27,346 bases of DNA, taken from positions 1 to 27,346 of IMG/VR virus record IMGVR_UViG_3300005976_000009; one strand, given 5' to 3'. Shown piece by piece: positions 9,423 to 24,107 of this stretch (position 1 is the stretch's first letter; every line of letters starts with the position of its first letter). A program made the translations under genes and the position numbers. The notes below the pieces were generated by a model that saw nothing but the letters and a program-made list of their open reading frames with translations, was not told the DNA's origin and searched no databases. Source of the stretch: a virus.

Positions 9423-9512
9423 CCCCTACATCCAAAATTCCTAAAAGTCTGTAGGGGCTAACTCAACCTACACCAGTGGTATAGGCTGAATTAGAGAACC
9501 GCTTAGGCGGTT
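9423..9512 (-). promoter_or_regulatory. Structured leader with two hairpins and a dyad
   Basis: Three elements in 90 bp upstream of the 9389 start codon: an 8-bp stem CCCCTACA/TGTAGGGG (9423-9430, 9450-9457); a 19-bp near-perfect dyad CCTACACCA-G-TGGTATAGG (9467-9485); and AACCGC-TTAG-GCGGTT (9497-9512), which overlaps the end of the 9511 gene. No U-run follows the last stem, so termination is doubtful. No clear promoter was found here. Confidence 0.45.
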
Positions 9513-9813
9513 AGTCTATAGTGAACATGCTCATTATTCCTCCTTTGTATAAATCATCAAGCGTGTTTTTGGTAAGTGTTAACTTTCCAGTGCACTTATT
9601 GTGGTAGCTCATGTATCCGCTTCCTCCGTGTTTTTCTAAAACATCCACTTCGGATTCTTCAAGCAGTTCGTCACTGATACAATAGCATTCTTCATCTTCA
9701 GCTATAATACATTTAAGCTCTTCTATTTTATCCTCATTGCCCGCAATAGGTAGGTAAAAGTTCCACTCCTCACCTTCATTGTCGTTAATTTCTGTGAATT
9801 TTACGTATTTCAT
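9511..9813 (-). CDS. Acidic hypothetical protein
   Basis: 100 residues, very acidic in the middle (IIAEDEECYC and EESEVD). The N-terminus (MKYVKFTEINDNEGEEWNFY) is beta-rich. Three cysteines include a CYC motif. No known family. It is encoded between the tRNA-like RNA and the structured leader of the envelope genes, in the leftward direction. There is no Shine-Dalgarno sequence; the start is preceded by AAATATT. The function is unknown. Confidence 0.5.
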   Translation of the reverse strand: MKYVKFTEINDNEGEEWNFYLPIAGNEDKIEELKCIIAEDEECYCISDELLEESEVDVLEKHGGSGYMSYHNKCTGKLTLTKNTLDDLYKGGIMSMFTID

Positions 9814-9849
9814 AATATTTTAAGTTTATTTCTCAGCTCAAAGGCTGAA

Positions 9850-10033
9850 TCAAGCAGACAGGATTCGAACCTGCGTAAGAAAGGATTAAGCCACGTATTA
9901 TAGTGATGGGTCAGGCTGGGTAGTCATCACACTCCCCCGACGTCTATTTCCCTTTATTCTTTTATTAGAGTACAAAAACTAATCGTCTGTCTTCTGCACT
10001 TTTTCAGCTATTGACCGCTTTAGCTACTGCTTG
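9850..10033 (-). ncRNA. tRNA-like RNA with a long insert between D and T arms
   Basis: Leftward strand. A perfect 7-bp acceptor stem (CAAGCAG 10033-10027 with CTGCTTG 9857-9851), U8-A9, a 4-bp D stem GCTA/TAGC with loop AAGCGGTCAA (A14, GG and A21 present), and a T arm GCAGG-TTCGAAT-CCTGT (9874-9858). Between the D and T arms lie about 131 nt instead of the usual 22-45. The insert holds a pseudoknot-like arrangement (GTGATG/CATCAC with AGCC/GGCT) and a GCA-started 10-codon frame ending in TAATAA (9997-9962). No normal anticodon arm was found and CCA is not encoded. There is no G3-U70 pair, which argues against a standard tmRNA. Flanks extend the acceptor helix to about 18 nt. It is a divergent tmRNA, an interrupted tRNA or another tRNA mimic. 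Confidence 0.5.
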
Positions 10034-10085
10034 ATTCAATCTTTCAACAAGCCGTTTTTGTTAGGAACGACTGAAACCTAGGCAC

Positions 10086-10883
10086 TTACGCATTCTTCAA
10101 TAGCTTAATAAGTTTTGCAGCTATGTGTTCGTATGCTGACTCTGCTGCTGCTTGCCACGCAGACTCTGCTGCTGCCTCTGCTGCCGACCCTGCTGACTGT
10201 GCTGCCTCTGCTGACCATACTGCTGACCATGCTGGCCGTGCAGACTCTGCTGACCATGCTGCTTGCCACGCAGACTCTGCTGCTGACCATACTGCAGACT
10301 CTGCTGCCTTTGCTGCTGCTTGCCATCCTGACTCAGCTGCTGACTGTGCTGCCTCTGCTGCCTCTGCTGCTGCTGACCATCCTGACGCTGATGCCGACTC
10401 TGCTAAAGACCATGCTGACCGTGCCACCTCTTCTGCTGACTCTGCTGCCGACTCTGCTGCCGACTCTGCTAAAGACCATGCTGACTCATCAATCTCTTCT
10501 CGTTTCGAACGACTAAGTAACTCAACAATCGAGTCAATCGCCGCTTTCCCATCATCGAATGCATATTGTCTGCAACCAAATGTTGGGTCAGTTAAGACAG
10601 CAATCTTCATATCAATTACGACCTTTACGACCTGTGACAAATCTTTTCCAGCTGGAATTGAATTATAAAAGTCAAATTGATCTGCTTTATTTTTGGGTAG
10701 GTTTTTAAATATTGTATCACCAAGATACAATATAGCAACAGCAACATCGAGTTTCTCTTGGAATTTTTCACCAAGTATTTGGCAAACAGCGAATTCACCA
10801 GAGCCTACATTGCAGCCTTGATTTTTTTCGATGTTCTGGACAACGTGTCTTTTGAATTTTGGATTATTATTGTATGATTGCAT
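10086..10883 (-). CDS. Protein with globular N-domain and Ala/Ser/Trp pentad repeats
   Basis: 265 residues. Residues 1-125 look globular (FGCRQYAFDDGKAAIDSIVEL). Residues about 130-250 are a low-complexity array built from units such as SAWSLAESA, AESAA and WSAAESAWQA with a rough 5-residue period. The C-terminus YEHIAAKLIKLLKNA returns to normal helix. Proteins of this style occur in phages and bacteria, but no function is established that I know of. The array is encoded by CTGCTG-rich DNA prone to slippage. A 10-bp tandem duplication at the start creates a second, out-of-frame upstream ATG (10893). Confidence 0.6.
   Translation of the reverse strand: MQSYNNNPKFKRHVVQNIEKNQGCNVGSGEFAVCQILGEKFQEKLDVAVAILYLGDTIFKNLPKNKADQFDFYNSIPAGKDLSQVVKVVIDMKIAVLTDPTFGCRQYAFDDGKAAIDSIVELLSRSKREEIDESAWSLAESAAESAAESAEEVARSAWSLAESASASGWSAAAEAAEAAQSAAESGWQAAAKAAESAVWSAAESAWQAAWSAESARPAWSAVWSAEAAQSAGSAAEAAAESAWQAAAESAYEHIAAKLIKLLKNA
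10130..10490 (-). repeat. CTG-rich degenerate repeat array inside CDS
   Basis: Degenerate 12-18 bp units with the core GACTCTGCTGCC / GACCATGCTG (plus strand) encode the Ala/Ser/Glu/Trp repeats. The base composition is clearly more GC-rich than the flanks. Confidence 0.8.
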
Positions 10884-12250: not shown

Positions 12251-12721
12251 TTATTTACTAAGTGCTTTTTTAATTTCTGATAATGTATATTCTTTACCTT
12301 CGATGCTTATAGTTTCTTCTTTTGATTCTTCAATATCAACTATTTCATAATCTCCAAGAACATACTGATCGTCACCGCCAACAAACCAGCCTTGTTTGTA
12401 TTCTTTTTTAGCGCATAAACGAGCATCGTCAGAGATACGAGCATCGCCATAGATACGAGCATCGCCATAGACCCAAGCATCGCCATAGACCTGAGCATCG
12501 CCATAGACCTGAGCATCGCCATAGACCTGAGCATCGCCATAGATACGAGCATCGCCATAGACCCAAGCGTTGCCTTCTTGTGATAAGTTTTTTTCTTTTT
12601 CGATGTATCCTCCGAGTTCTCCTTTAGATACACTACCAAAGTTCTTTAACGCTTTTATTTGATAGAGTGTTACTCCGTTGTGCTGTATAGTTGTGTTAGT
12701 TAGTTCGTATTTTTTAGACAT
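12251..12721 (-). CDS. YGDA-repeat (beta-helix-like) protein
   Basis: 156 residues. The N-terminus (ELTNTTIQHNGVTLYQIKAL, GELGGYIEKEKNLS) and the array of 8-9 six-residue units (VYGDAR, IYGDAQ, VYGDAW) match a widespread phage protein type. The hexapeptide spacing suggests a left-handed beta helix. The C-terminus (about 105-156) is a separate acidic domain with GKEYTLSEIKKAL. No enzymatic function is known to me. The array is encoded by 18-bp DNA repeats. TAA-T-ATG junctions flank it on both sides within the SSB/Rad52 operon. Confidence 0.7.
   Translation of the reverse strand: MSKKYELTNTTIQHNGVTLYQIKALKNFGSVSKGELGGYIEKEKNLSQEGNAWVYGDARIYGDAQVYGDAQVYGDAQVYGDAWVYGDARIYGDARISDDARLCAKKEYKQGWFVGGDDQYVLGDYEIVDIEESKEETISIEGKEYTLSEIKKALSK
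12421..12573 (-). repeat. 18-bp tandem repeats encoding YGDA units
   Basis: On the plus strand the unit is GAGCATCGCCATAGACCT with small changes. Three successive units are nearly identical (about 12492-12545), which suggests recent duplication. Confidence 0.9.
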
Positions 12722-20688: not shown

Positions 20689-22848
20689 ATGAGACTACAA
20701 GATAGAATCAGAGCTGGGTTCAGTGCATTCAATCAAGCTAAGCCTGCAATTGCACGCCCTGATTATTCTGTACCACAAACACTGGACAATCTCAAAATCT
20801 CCGCTCTACCACCCTCCCTACAACAATACGCTCAGTTCATAGTAACACCCCCACCATTCCATACTTACCACACTTACTATCAAGTATTTAATGAAGTACA
20901 AACACCTATTGATAAGATTGCTGAGAGAGTCGCAGCTCTAGGCGGTCAACTGTATGATAAAGATGGTGTTGTAGATCAAGACCTAACTGACAAGCTCTAT
21001 GCTGAGTACAATCTCGAAGAGTTAACATCTGAGCTAGTTCGACACCGCTTAATCTATGGACAAGTAAACCCTGCTTTATTCAATGAAGAAGATACTACTA
21101 AACAGATCCAACTAATACCAAGTGAGCAAGTAACTCTTTGGCAAACTCAAGGGTTCAAGATCGAACGGCTTACATGGAGGTTTGAGTATACTACGCTTGA
21201 TATTAAAGATGACTTTAAAGTATTCAGAATACCGTCAATCAATTCTAAGTTCTTTGGTAAATCACCTCTAACTTCTTTTTATGATGATCTTAATCAAGTA
21301 AGCCTTGATAGAGATAACTTCAATCAGTTCCTACTAAACAACTCGTTCTTTGGCGTTGCTATTATCCCAAATGAGGGACTTTCAAAAGACGAATTGGACG
21401 CTTTAGTTGAAACTGCCAAGCAACTCAACGACCCACGCTCACGTTACAAGACAGGAGTATATACAGGAGTAAAAGAACTCAAACAAATTAAGCAGGAGAT
21501 CCAAGCACGCTTGAGCATTGAAGAAAAGAAATACATAGCTGTTAAGACTGCTAATGCGTTTGGTTACCCTTACCAATTACTTAAAGTATCCACAGGAGGC
21601 CTTGGACAAGGTGAGCAAAAAACCGTAATGCAGAATTACAAAGAAGAAACGATTGACCCCGCTCAAGCTATGGTAGGGCAATTTATCAATAACTTTGTAT
21701 TGCAGGTAGTAGCTAATAAAGCAGAGTATGCAGGGCTAATATGGAAGCCAAATGAAATGGTTATCAGTACTCTTGATGACATGATGAAGGTTGCCAACGC
21801 TGGATTTGCAAGCGGTCTATTCTCAGCATACGAAGCAAAAACAAGATTCTTGGGTTATACTGATGATGAAGTACAGTATGATGATAAGTTCAGAAAGATC
21901 GGCTCTAATGTTGTTAAAGAGGGTGAACTAAAAGAGGGAGATGTTCAGACTGATGAAGCACAAGACGAAGTAGAAGAGAATATTAAGTCGGTTGTATCCG
22001 CTGAATACATTAAATCATACATTCAAAATGCCAAGTCACTAAACGGTAATGATAAGCAACGAATCAAGAAGTTTTTAGAACTGGTTAAAAAGGAACGTGA
22101 TGAGGGCTTTTCACCAACCGAAGTAGTAGTCAAGAACGATAGAGCCAAAATGCTTCAAGACATGGTTGAACAGGCTTACACTGAGCAGATCAACGCCTTT
22201 GACTTTATAATTAACAAGAAGACCGTTGACGCTGATGGCTCACTTACTGAGGAAGAAATCAGAGAGGAACTAACGCCGCTGGCTAGCTTCTTAGACGTTG
22301 GATTGATGACCTACTATGTTAACTACTTAATGACTCTTGGTAAGATTGACGCTATTAATCAGATTGAAGAATTAGGCTTATCGCTTACAAACGCAGAAAG
22401 GGCTGAGGTCAATAAGGAAGTGACTGACTATGCTAATAAAAGAGTTGAGTCATTACTCGGAGTAGAGAACGGCGGAGATAATTCAATTGACAGTCCTTTA
22501 GTGTCAAGTAGCTTAGATGACACAACAGTAGGGCTTATCATGGCAGTCCTTACAATGGCAACGACCCGCAAGGAAGCAATGGAGCTATTCAGGCGAAGGA
22601 TTAAAGACCGTGCTAAGCTCTTGGCCGATAATGAAGCTGGCAGGGCTTACAATGCTGCGGTTGATATTGTGTCAAAAAAAAACAATAATATTGGCTGGGA
22701 ATGGCTATTAAGCAGATCAATAGATAAAAGAGAGATACACTTTGTATTGGTAGGCATGACAGCCCGCTATGGTCAAAGAATCAACGGGGAGACACCAGGC
22801 GAAAGAATAAATTGTAAATGCGGAAAGAAATTAATTAAATTAGTATGA
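20689..22848 (+). CDS. Portal protein with C-terminal MuF-like domain
   Basis: 719 residues, longer than typical portals (400-500). Residues about 40-430 are portal-like: YYQVFNEVQTPIDKIAERVA, then a wing/stem region and the GLGQGEQKTVMQNYKEETI segment. The C-terminal part (about 560-719) ends with RAKLLADNEAGRAYNAA, WEWLLSRSID and ERINCKCGKK, resembling the Mu gpF/SPP1 gp7 minor head domain. The portal forms the DNA entry ring; MuF-like domains are minor head proteins, some carrying effectors. The stop overlaps the protease start as ATGA. Confidence 0.85.
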   Translation: MRLQDRIRAGFSAFNQAKPAIARPDYSVPQTLDNLKISALPPSLQQYAQFIVTPPPFHTYHTYYQVFNEVQTPIDKIAERVAALGGQLYDKDGVVDQDLTDKLYAEYNLEELTSELVRHRLIYGQVNPALFNEEDTTKQIQLIPSEQVTLWQTQGFKIERLTWRFEYTTLDIKDDFKVFRIPSINSKFFGKSPLTSFYDDLNQVSLDRDNFNQFLLNNSFFGVAIIPNEGLSKDELDALVETAKQLNDPRSRYKTGVYTGVKELKQIKQEIQARLSIEEKKYIAVKTANAFGYPYQLLKVSTGGLGQGEQKTVMQNYKEETIDPAQAMVGQFINNFVLQVVANKAEYAGLIWKPNEMVISTLDDMMKVANAGFASGLFSAYEAKTRFLGYTDDEVQYDDKFRKIGSNVVKEGELKEGDVQTDEAQDEVEENIKSVVSAEYIKSYIQNAKSLNGNDKQRIKKFLELVKKERDEGFSPTEVVVKNDRAKMLQDMVEQAYTEQINAFDFIINKKTVDADGSLTEEEIREELTPLASFLDVGLMTYYVNYLMTLGKIDAINQIEELGLSLTNAERAEVNKEVTDYANKRVESLLGVENGGDNSIDSPLVSSSLDDTTVGLIMAVLTMATTRKEAMELFRRRIKDRAKLLADNEAGRAYNAAVDIVSKKNNNIGWEWLLSRSIDKREIHFVLVGMTARYGQRINGETPGERINCKCGKKLIKLV

Positions 22849-24107
22849 TCGACTTTATAATCAACACCAAATCATTAACAGCAGGCGGGCTTGTAATCCG
22901 TGGCACTGCAACCACTAATCACCTTGATAAGCATGGTGAATCAATCACTATCTCGCCAAACGCATTTAAACAGTCATATAAGAAGTTTATTGATAAAGGT
23001 GGTAAGATCATGGCTGAGCATGGTTTTGAGCGTAAATATGGTAACAGACAGCTTGGTAATGTACTCAACATGGAATACGCACCTGAAGACTATTCTATTG
23101 ACTCACCAAAACCTTTAGAGATGAAAATTGATGTTGTTGCTAATATTACTGATCAAGAATTAATACAAGATATTTTAGCAAACAAGAAGACAAGCTTTTC
23201 ACTCAACTGGAAAACATTGAACTGGTTGACCAATCAAAAGACTAAGCAACGCATAGACACCGAGGTAGAGATCAATGAGCTAACAGTGACAGGTGATCCA
23301 GCCAATCCTAAAGCTAAGTTTACCGTTGTTACAGATGAAGAGTTGGCTAAGCAGTACAAGCTAGGGGAACGAGTAAAAGTCTTTGATACAATCGGAAACG
23401 TTAAAACGGTCTATGTTGATAATGATAATCACTACTATGTTGATGTAGAGTTTGAAGACGAGATTGTTAATATGAAGACGGCAAGCAAAATCCCGTTTGA
23501 GTTGATTAATAAAAAGAGCAAAAACTACGGTTGTGTGATGGCGAAATACAAAGATGATATATTGAACCCTCTGACTAAGATTATTCGCAAAGAAGATTTG
23601 TATGTTGATCCAAACGATCCAATAAAAGATGGAATAGAAAAGAACCCACACACAACGCTTTTATATGGCTTATTGCCTAGTGTGACAAAAGAACAAATAG
23701 AAAACGTACTATTTGCATCACAAGACTGGACTAATGTTTTTACTCTCGTTGGGACTTATAATACTAAAATCAACCCAAAGTGTATTGGTGTAACTATATT
23801 TGAAAAAGACGATTATGACGTTTTAGTTCTCGAAATGGCAGACGAAAGATTCAACAAAGCAAATGAATTATTAAAGACACTACCATACGAGTCAGAGTAC
23901 CCTGATTATATAGCACATACAACACTGGCCTATTTGCAAAAGGGTAATGCGGAAGGCTACCGTGAAAGCATTAAAGAAATAGCTAAGAATATAAGCTTCA
24001 ACATAGAGTCAATTATCTTTTCTAGTGCTGAGCAGAATAGAGAGTATACAGTATTACAGCCGTATCGTGTAAATATTAAATCAAAATATAAAGTTAATAT
24101 TCTTTAG
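22845..24107 (+). CDS. Prohead protease fused to a 2H phosphoesterase-like domain
   Basis: 420 residues. Residues 1-160 fit the HK97-type (S78) prohead protease: LVIRGTATTNHLDKHGESI, H59 in MAEHG, and Ser in KKTSFSLNW (S117/S119), then LTVTGDPANPKA. Residues about 170-215 look like a small SH3-like linker. Residues about 226-410 carry two HxT motifs, H269-T-T (PHTTLLYGL) and H358-T-T (AHTTLAYL), 89 residues apart, the hallmark of 2H phosphoesterases. The first half would mature the capsid; the second could hydrolyse cyclic nucleotide or RNA 2',3'-phosphodiesters. Confidence 0.85.
   Translation: MIDFIINTKSLTAGGLVIRGTATTNHLDKHGESITISPNAFKQSYKKFIDKGGKIMAEHGFERKYGNRQLGNVLNMEYAPEDYSIDSPKPLEMKIDVVANITDQELIQDILANKKTSFSLNWKTLNWLTNQKTKQRIDTEVEINELTVTGDPANPKAKFTVVTDEELAKQYKLGERVKVFDTIGNVKTVYVDNDNHYYVDVEFEDEIVNMKTASKIPFELINKKSKNYGCVMAKYKDDILNPLTKIIRKEDLYVDPNDPIKDGIEKNPHTTLLYGLLPSVTKEQIENVLFASQDWTNVFTLVGTYNTKINPKCIGVTIFEKDDYDVLVLEMADERFNKANELLKTLPYESEYPDYIAHTTLAYLQKGNAEGYRESIKEIAKNISFNIESIIFSSAEQNREYTVLQPYRVNIKSKYKVNIL

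What the first reader, a model, noticed from the sequence alone, without database searches (positions are those of the whole stretch)
9847..10044. tRNA-like RNA with canonical D and T arms but a 131-nt insert and an extended acceptor helix
Seen: 7-bp acceptor, D arm and T arm with conserved tRNA bases, no normal anticodon arm, a pseudoknot-like insert, and a GCA-started 10-codon frame ending TAATAA. Flanking bases extend the acceptor helix to about 18 nt with one mismatch. Known: tmRNAs join a tRNA-like end to a tag frame with pseudoknots, but they need a G3-U70 pair and lack a full D stem; here the opposite holds. Inference: a divergent tmRNA-like RNA, a tRNA with an intron-like insertion, or a tRNA mimic used for regulation or processing.
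Basis: partly seen in the sequence, partly recalled or inferred. Interest (0 to 1): 0.7.

Follow-up and report, generated by a model that had tools for sequence, protein, structure and literature searches.

The report
Phage RNA on a tRNA scaffold
This phage carries a gene for an RNA that has the top half of a tRNA but a 132-base insert where the codon-reading arm should be, and many other phages carry similar molecules with interchangeable inserts, which suggests that phages use tRNA ends as a ready-made holder for small functional RNAs.

Summary
On the minus strand (10033 to 9851) lies a perfect tRNA top half: 7-bp acceptor, T8, 4-bp D arm with A14 and G18G19, and 5-bp T arm with TTCGAAT. A 132-nt insert replaces the anticodon and variable arms. 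The acceptor helix runs on to 18 positions with one mismatch. The descriptor gave 0 hits in 600 shuffles of the window. It is not a canonical tRNA, tmRNA or Rfam RNA. The tag frame and pseudoknot are not convincing, and an intron reading needs a poor anticodon stem.
Relatives give the best clue. Phages sharing this phage's Erf protein, and more than 120 further IMG/VR stretches, carry tRNA-like elements with a conserved acceptor/D/T scaffold (about 90% identical) and unrelated inserts (median 58 nt, 94 clusters among 118 elements). Two payload types also occur without the scaffold, one before a terminator in cultured Cellulophaga phages, one behind a Bacteroidota-type promoter. The inserts therefore look like functional RNA modules.
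The window element has the same architecture but a different scaffold lineage, and no homologue of its insert was found. Best reading: a tRNA-scaffolded small RNA, probably cut out by host tRNA enzymes. Its target is unknown.

The parts
9851..10033 (-). whole tRNA-like element (183 nt): tRNA top half with a 132-nt insert
   Evidence: top hit of model R1 in the window
10027..10033 (-). acceptor stem 5' strand CAAGCAG
   Evidence: pairs 7/7 with 9851-9857
9851..9857 (-). acceptor stem 3' strand CTGCTTG; A discriminator at 9850
10007..10024 (-). D arm GCTA-AAGCGGTCAA-TAGC with A14, A15, G18, G19, A21
9858..9874 (-). T arm GCAGG-TTCGAAT-CCTGT
   Evidence: T arm alone matches RF00005, 12.6 bits, below its cut-off
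9875..10006 (-). 132-nt insert (payload) in place of anticodon and variable arms
   Evidence: no homologue found
10034..10044 (-). 5' flank that extends the acceptor helix (TTGAAT, mismatch A, AAAG)
9840..9850 (-). 3' flank that extends the acceptor helix (ATTCAG, mismatch C, CTTT); partly shared with a competing hairpin TCAGC-CTTTGA-GCTGA at 9848-9833
   Evidence: hairpin read directly from the sequence
9962..9997 (-).
   Evidence: 0.9% of shuffles, 4.8% with any tandem stop; post hoc
9903..9930 (-). possible pseudoknot: hairpin loop GTGATG 9930-9925 complementary to CATCAC 9908-9903
   Evidence: found in 9% of shuffles, not significant
10086..10883 (-). upstream co-directional ORF (Ala/Ser/Trp-rich repeats, phrog_3416-like); the element probably lies on its transcript
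   Evidence: no promoter-like or terminator-like site between it and the element
9511..9813 (-). downstream co-directional ORF (phrog_14226-like), start codon 36 nt after the element

Best explanation
The element is a small-RNA gene of a temperate-looking phage of probably a Bacteroidota host, built on a tRNA scaffold. The acceptor, D and T arms fold as the top half of a tRNA. The anticodon and variable arms are replaced by a payload RNA, so the molecule cannot decode. Shown by sequence: the scaffold, the absence of an anticodon arm, and a large set of phage RNAs with the same architecture whose payloads are swapped wholesale, two of them also found free-standing. Inferred: the RNA is transcribed with its neighbours, cut out by host RNase P and tRNA 3'-end enzymes that read the T arm and acceptor stem, and protected from decay by its tRNA-like ends. 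The payload then acts in trans on a host or phage target, for example as a decoy or inhibitor of a defence or translation factor, or as a regulator. Fast turnover of payloads on a fixed scaffold fits an arms race.
For: Perfect tRNA top half, 0 descriptor hits in 33 Mb of shuffled sequence. Not a canonical tRNA or tmRNA and not in Rfam. 9 of 42 records searched, nearly all sharing the Erf gene, have matches to the scaffold model; this includes the window (partial match) and a few ordinary tRNAs. The 16-mer AGTCAGGTGGCGGAAT hits more than 120 IMG/VR stretches; 122 of 143 places have a matching T arm and acceptor 69-269 nt away. Among 118 non-ARAGORN elements the scaffold is 90-92% identical (partly by the selection), inserts 48%, equal to shuffled inserts (47%), in 94 clusters. 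All 39 elements with a canonical tRNA within 500 nt lie on its strand, as expected of processed arrays. Recurrent payload classes keep structure: compensatory changes in the closing stem of A2. Payloads occur outside the scaffold: model R2 finds Cellulophaga phage RNAs at 40 bits, E 1e-4, next hit 19 bits, with an intrinsic terminator; L175 carries the L146 payload at 86%/43 nt, E 2e-7, behind a TAACTTTG promoter motif and inside an 8-bp closing stem. Model R1, trained without the window, ranks the element first in the window, 23.2 bits, E 0.0016, next 8.9 bits.
Against: Canonical tRNAs of other isotypes score 20-39 bits with R1, so the R1 hit shows a tRNA top half in general, not descent from the AGTCAGG lineage. 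The element differs from most of that lineage: acceptor starts with C, D arm TA-GCTA, extended acceptor helix (others extend by 0-1 bp), 3' ATTC rather than ACNN, and not in a tRNA array. No homologue of its own insert was found, so covariation cannot be tested for it. No transcript data. A15-C48 is not a Levitt pair.
Confidence: 0.58

Rival explanations
1. A tRNA gene that has lost or had replaced its anticodon arm by insertion or recombination and is now a decaying pseudogene without function.
For: Phage tRNA genes are often lost and remodelled (general knowledge); no homologue of the insert; insert not more structured than shuffles; A15-C48 not paired in the usual way.
Against: Acceptor, D and T arms have no mismatch and keep all tested tRNA-specific bases; the acceptor helix is longer than a tRNA needs; similar elements are frequent in phages, so the shape is not a one-off accident.
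Confidence: 0.16
2. A cis-acting processing or regulatory element: the tRNA-like fold between two co-directional genes is a cleavage site for RNase P and 3'-end enzymes that separates or protects the mRNAs, and the insert is filler.
For: Lies between the ORF ending at 10086 and the ORF starting at 9813 with no promoter or terminator between; extended helix, and a competing hairpin 9848-9833 just before the start codon.
Against: A cleavage site needs no 132-nt insert; the comparable elements lie in tRNA arrays and carry payloads that also exist alone.
Confidence: 0.14
3. A divergent, minimal tmRNA with tag AEDRRLVFVL.
For: tRNA-like ends joined to a GCA-started frame ending TAATAA at 9997-9962. 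Phage tmRNAs are known, including a TLD-only form in phage DS6A reported to inhibit host tmRNA (PMC4131195, PMC11915505).
Against: No tmRNA match with ARAGORN or Rfam; no G3-U70; a full D stem; no P2 helix; frame at chance level after the fact; no tag in 118 similar elements.
Confidence: 0.03
4. A tRNA gene interrupted by a small intron that is spliced out to leave tRNA-Leu(UAA).
For: ARAGORN with introns allowed returns tRNA-Leu(taa) with a 110-nt intron after position 34.
Against: The anticodon stem would be GAAAA/CTTTC with an A-C mismatch; no intron family matches; 110 nt is too short for a known group I intron (general knowledge); another ARAGORN mode gives tRNA-Cys for the same stretch.
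Confidence: 0.04
5. A phage attachment site or captured host tRNA remnant.
For: tRNA genes are common integration sites (PMC9897764); the phage has repressor-like and antirepressor-like genes.
Against: attP carries one end of a tRNA, not both halves; the T arm plus acceptor 23-mer is absent, at up to 2 mismatches, from 395 Bacteroidota genomes; no integrase among the window proteins tested.
Confidence: 0.03

Closest known systems
AGTCAGG-type phage tRNA-scaffold elements
   Same: tRNA acceptor, D and T arms with the anticodon and variable arms replaced by an unrelated insert of 13-130 nt or more; T arm ACAGG/GCAGG-TTCGAAT-CCTGT nearly identical; phage genomes
   Different: Those share a leucine-type D arm TGGCGGAATTGGTAGACGC and acceptor AGTCAGG, have no extended acceptor helix and often sit with tRNA arrays; the window element has another D arm and acceptor and stands alone
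tmRNA (RF00023) and the TLD-only tmRNA of mycobacteriophage DS6A
   Same: tRNA-like ends with a functional RNA in place of the anticodon arm; phage copies exist (PMC4131195, PMC11915505)
   Different: tmRNA has G3-U70, no D stem, a long P2 helix, several pseudoknots and a conserved tag; none is established here
Phage tRNAs that defeat tRNA-targeting defences
   Same: phage-encoded tRNA-shaped RNAs serving counter-defence (abstract of PMC11555353)
   Different: Those are normal tRNAs with anticodons that replace cleaved host tRNAs; this molecule cannot decode
Artificial tRNA-scaffold expression of recombinant RNA (from memory: Ponchon and Dardel)
   Same: RNA of interest inserted in place of the anticodon stem-loop to use tRNA processing and stability
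   Different: man-made; here natural

Membership tests
canonical tRNA (RF00005) | acceptor stem, D arm, T arm with conserved bases | tested here: met
canonical tRNA (RF00005) | 5-bp anticodon arm with 7-nt loop; score above the curated threshold | tested here: not met
   ARAGORN none; Rfam only 12.6 bits on the T arm against 29 needed
tmRNA (RF00023 and permuted forms) | match to tmRNA covariance models or ARAGORN tmRNA | tested here: not met
   only a meaningless hit at a lowered threshold
tmRNA (RF00023 and permuted forms) | G3-U70 alanine identity pair and absence of a D stem | tested here: not met
   acceptor CAAGCAG/CTGCTTG has no G-U; D stem 4 bp
tmRNA (RF00023 and permuted forms) | conserved tag reading frame | tested here: inconclusive
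   frame present but 0.9-4.8% of shuffles have one and no homologue exists to test conservation
intron-containing tRNA | splicing to a tRNA with an intact anticodon arm; intron of a known class | tested here: not met
   A-C mismatch in the forced stem; no intron family in Rfam; splicing itself not testable here
phage tRNA-scaffold RNAs with swapped payload | tRNA top half intact, anticodon and variable arms replaced by an unrelated insert | tested here: met
phage tRNA-scaffold RNAs with swapped payload | sequence descent from the AGTCAGG/leucine-type scaffold | tested here: inconclusive
   R1 top hit 23.2 bits, E 0.0016, but ordinary tRNAs score 20-39 bits with R1
phage tRNA-scaffold RNAs with swapped payload | payload is a structured RNA conserved in relatives | tested here: inconclusive
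   met for other members; no homologue of the window payload
phage tRNA-scaffold RNAs with swapped payload | processed, stable transcript | not testable with these tools
   needs RNA from infected cells

The most novel reading that the evidence does not exclude
Phages of Bacteroidota and others carry a modular class of small RNAs in which a fixed tRNA top half serves as a holder for interchangeable payload RNAs, each a free-standing functional RNA in its own right, turned over quickly against changing host targets. The window element is a member on an independently derived scaffold with an extended acceptor helix.
Probability: 0.45. Interest if true: 0.88.

Novelty: new variant of a known kind. 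Interest (0 to 1): 0.7.

Why it matters
tRNA annotation tools skip or miscall these molecules, so a large set of phage RNAs may be overlooked. If the payloads are functional, phages have evolved a natural tRNA-scaffold expression system, and the roughly 90 unrelated payloads seen here would be a catalogue of candidate RNA inhibitors or regulators of bacterial processes, testable one by one. It would also show that tmRNA is not the only case of a tRNA end carrying another RNA.

Tried and rejected
tmRNA reading (ARAGORN, Rfam, tag and pseudoknot shuffles). Intron reading. Attachment site or captured host tRNA. Antisense pairing of the insert with the rest of the window: longest 11 nt, same as shuffles. 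Exact T-arm, D-arm and acceptor patterns in IMG/VR for close relatives: none for the 28-mer; one D-arm hit, L229, has no T arm and is chance; one T-arm hit, L230, is another unrecognised tRNA-like of about 95 nt with acceptor CATGCAG but no other similarity. Neighbour genes as queries gave no relatives. The 99.9% identical sister contig ends at window 12402 and does not reach the element. A universal closing stem in the payloads: only slightly more frequent than in shuffles. My column choice for the second helix was wrong, so that count says nothing; the pairing was read by hand. Free-standing homologues of three other payload classes in cultured phages: none. Literature searches found no description of such a family, but only open-licence PubMed Central papers were searched.

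Full report
WHAT IS THERE. The window is a 27,346-base IMG/VR virus record with terminase, portal, Erf-type annealing protein, SSB, a repressor-like and an antirepressor-like gene. Only 4 of 42 genes have a Shine-Dalgarno-like motif, the number expected by chance being about 3; this fits a Bacteroidota host. On the minus strand, between an ORF ending at 10086 and one starting at 9813, the sequence 10033 to 9851 forms a perfect tRNA top half: acceptor CAAGCAG/CTGCTTG, T8, D arm GCTA-AAGCGGTCAA-TAGC with A14, G18, G19 and A21, and T arm GCAGG-TTCGAAT-CCTGT. The flanks add TTGAAT/ATTCAG, one A-C mismatch and AAAG/CTTT. The anticodon and variable arms are replaced by 132 nt. A descriptor of these arms finds this one place in the window and nothing in 600 dinucleotide shuffles, about 33 Mb.

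WHAT IT IS NOT. ARAGORN finds no tRNA or tmRNA. With introns allowed it forces tRNA-Leu(taa) with a 110-nt intron and an A-C mismatch in the anticodon stem, or tRNA-Cys in another mode. Rfam gives nothing over the window at E 1, and over the element alone only the T arm at 12.6 bits against a threshold of 29. The insert is no more stable than its shuffles. There is no antisense match to the rest of the window beyond chance. The T arm plus acceptor is absent from 395 Bacteroidota genomes at up to two mismatches, which argues against a captured host tRNA or an attachment site.

RELATIVES. Loci sharing the Erf protein were scanned for the same architecture. Several carry tRNA-like elements that are too long or lack an anticodon arm. 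Three of them share the 5' sequence AGTCAGGTGGCGGAAT. The 26-base 3' end was found in only 4 stretches of the bacterial genome collection, all from metagenome-assembled genomes, and the scaffold in 1 of 294 genomes of one bacterial family. So the elements are essentially viral.

CONSERVED HOLDER, SWAPPED CONTENTS. Among 118 distinct non-ARAGORN elements, 5' and 3' scaffold parts are 90% and 92% identical between members of the leucine-type group (part of the 5' identity is by selection with the 16-mer). Inserts are 48% identical, the same as shuffled inserts (47%), and fall into 94 clusters, 83 of them single. Inserts are on average slightly more stable than shuffles (mean z -0.66, standard error 0.09, n = 111). 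Acceptor and T stems vary with compensatory changes (11 of 12 pairs), though pairing was a search criterion, so this is not independent. One recurrent payload (A2: L205, L228, L042, L127, L137, L178, L119) keeps a closing stem through compensatory changes that were not a criterion; in L228, a virus genome assembled from Manatee Spring, it sits on a different acceptor, AGTGCAG. All 39 elements with an ordinary tRNA within 500 nt are on the same strand as it; L113 packs 7 ARAGORN calls and more than ten tRNA-like elements into 5 kb.

PAYLOADS ALSO EXIST ALONE. The payload of L110, L168, L207 and L213 resembles a free-standing RNA in Cellulophaga phages phi10:1, Nekkels_1 and phi19:3. A covariance model built only from the scaffolded copies finds these at 40 bits, E 1e-4 over 0.5 Mb, the next hit being 19 bits, E 1.5. 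There the RNA is followed by an intrinsic terminator and is nearly identical in phages of two families. Both forms have stem AGGTTA/TAACCT, crossed by GATAAC/GTTATC in one and GAATAA/TTATTC in the other. The payload of L146 occurs in L175 without tRNA ends: it lies between tRNA-Gln and tRNA-Phe, behind a TTTG...TAACTTTG promoter motif and inside an 8-bp stem AGAGTAAG/CTTACTCT (86% over 43 nt, E 2e-7). The payload is therefore the functional unit in at least these two cases, and the tRNA top half is a holder.

HOW THE WINDOW ELEMENT FITS. A covariance model of the scaffold (R1), built without the window, ranks the element first in the window at 23.2 bits, E 0.0016, next 8.9 bits. This must not be over-read: ordinary tRNAs score 20 to 39 bits with the same model. 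So the element is shown to have a tRNA top half with the anticodon arm replaced, the same architecture, but common descent with the AGTCAGG lineage is not shown. Members with a TA-GCTT-type D arm (L032 17720-17787) and a tRNA-like with acceptor CATGCAG (L230) show that other scaffolds occur.

MECHANISM. Shown: architecture, modularity of the class, viral distribution, co-occurrence with tRNA arrays. Inferred: excision by RNase P and 3'-end processing, end protection, and action of the payload in trans. No promoter-like or terminator-like site separates the element from the upstream ORF; the nearest good promoter match is at 11286-11258 on the same strand, so it is probably co-transcribed. What the payload binds is unknown; rapid replacement of payloads suggests targets that change, such as defence systems. 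The closest experimental precedents are tmRNA and the TLD-only phage tmRNA of DS6A, reported to inhibit host tmRNA (PMC4131195, PMC11915505), and phage tRNAs that counter tRNA-cutting defences (PMC11555353).

VERDICT. The class as a whole appears undescribed in the papers and families I could search. The novelty rating is kept at 'new variant' because this element is one sequence without a homologue of its payload, and because only open-licence literature was available.

Noticed in passing
window 22845-24107 (+): The protein after the portal has a C-terminal part resembling phrog_755 'RNA ligase' (E 6e-11, residues 223-369) and, below the Pfam cut-off, the anti-CBASS protein Acb1 (E 6e-5); a 2H-phosphoesterase-like domain apparently fused to a structural or protease region.
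   Followed up: partly
L245 600-690, L246 600-690, L247 600-692: A nearly identical, apparently undescribed pseudoknotted RNA with an intrinsic terminator in cultured Cellulophaga phages of two different families (Assiduviridae, Pachyviridae).
   Followed up: partly
L113 1-4957: Phage array with 7 ARAGORN tRNA calls and more than ten tRNA-like elements with different inserts in 5 kb, including scaffolds other than AGTCAGG.
   Followed up: partly
L042 8985-9120; L180 7082-7189; L188 from 4212; L216 from 3737; L131 from 484: Some tRNA-scaffold elements carry an additional hairpin inserted into the D loop between GAA and TGGTAGA, a second insertion site.
   Followed up: no
window 10086-10883 (-): Ala/Ser/Trp-rich repetitive protein whose repeat region is open in several frames on both strands.
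   Followed up: no
window 12402-12574: YdcK-like beta-solenoid repeat gene (12251-12721); the 99.9% identical sister contig ends inside this tandem repeat.
   Followed up: no
L230 5908-6002 (-): Unrecognised tRNA-like of about 95 nt with acceptor CATGCAG and the same T arm as the window element, in an otherwise unrelated virus.
   Followed up: partly
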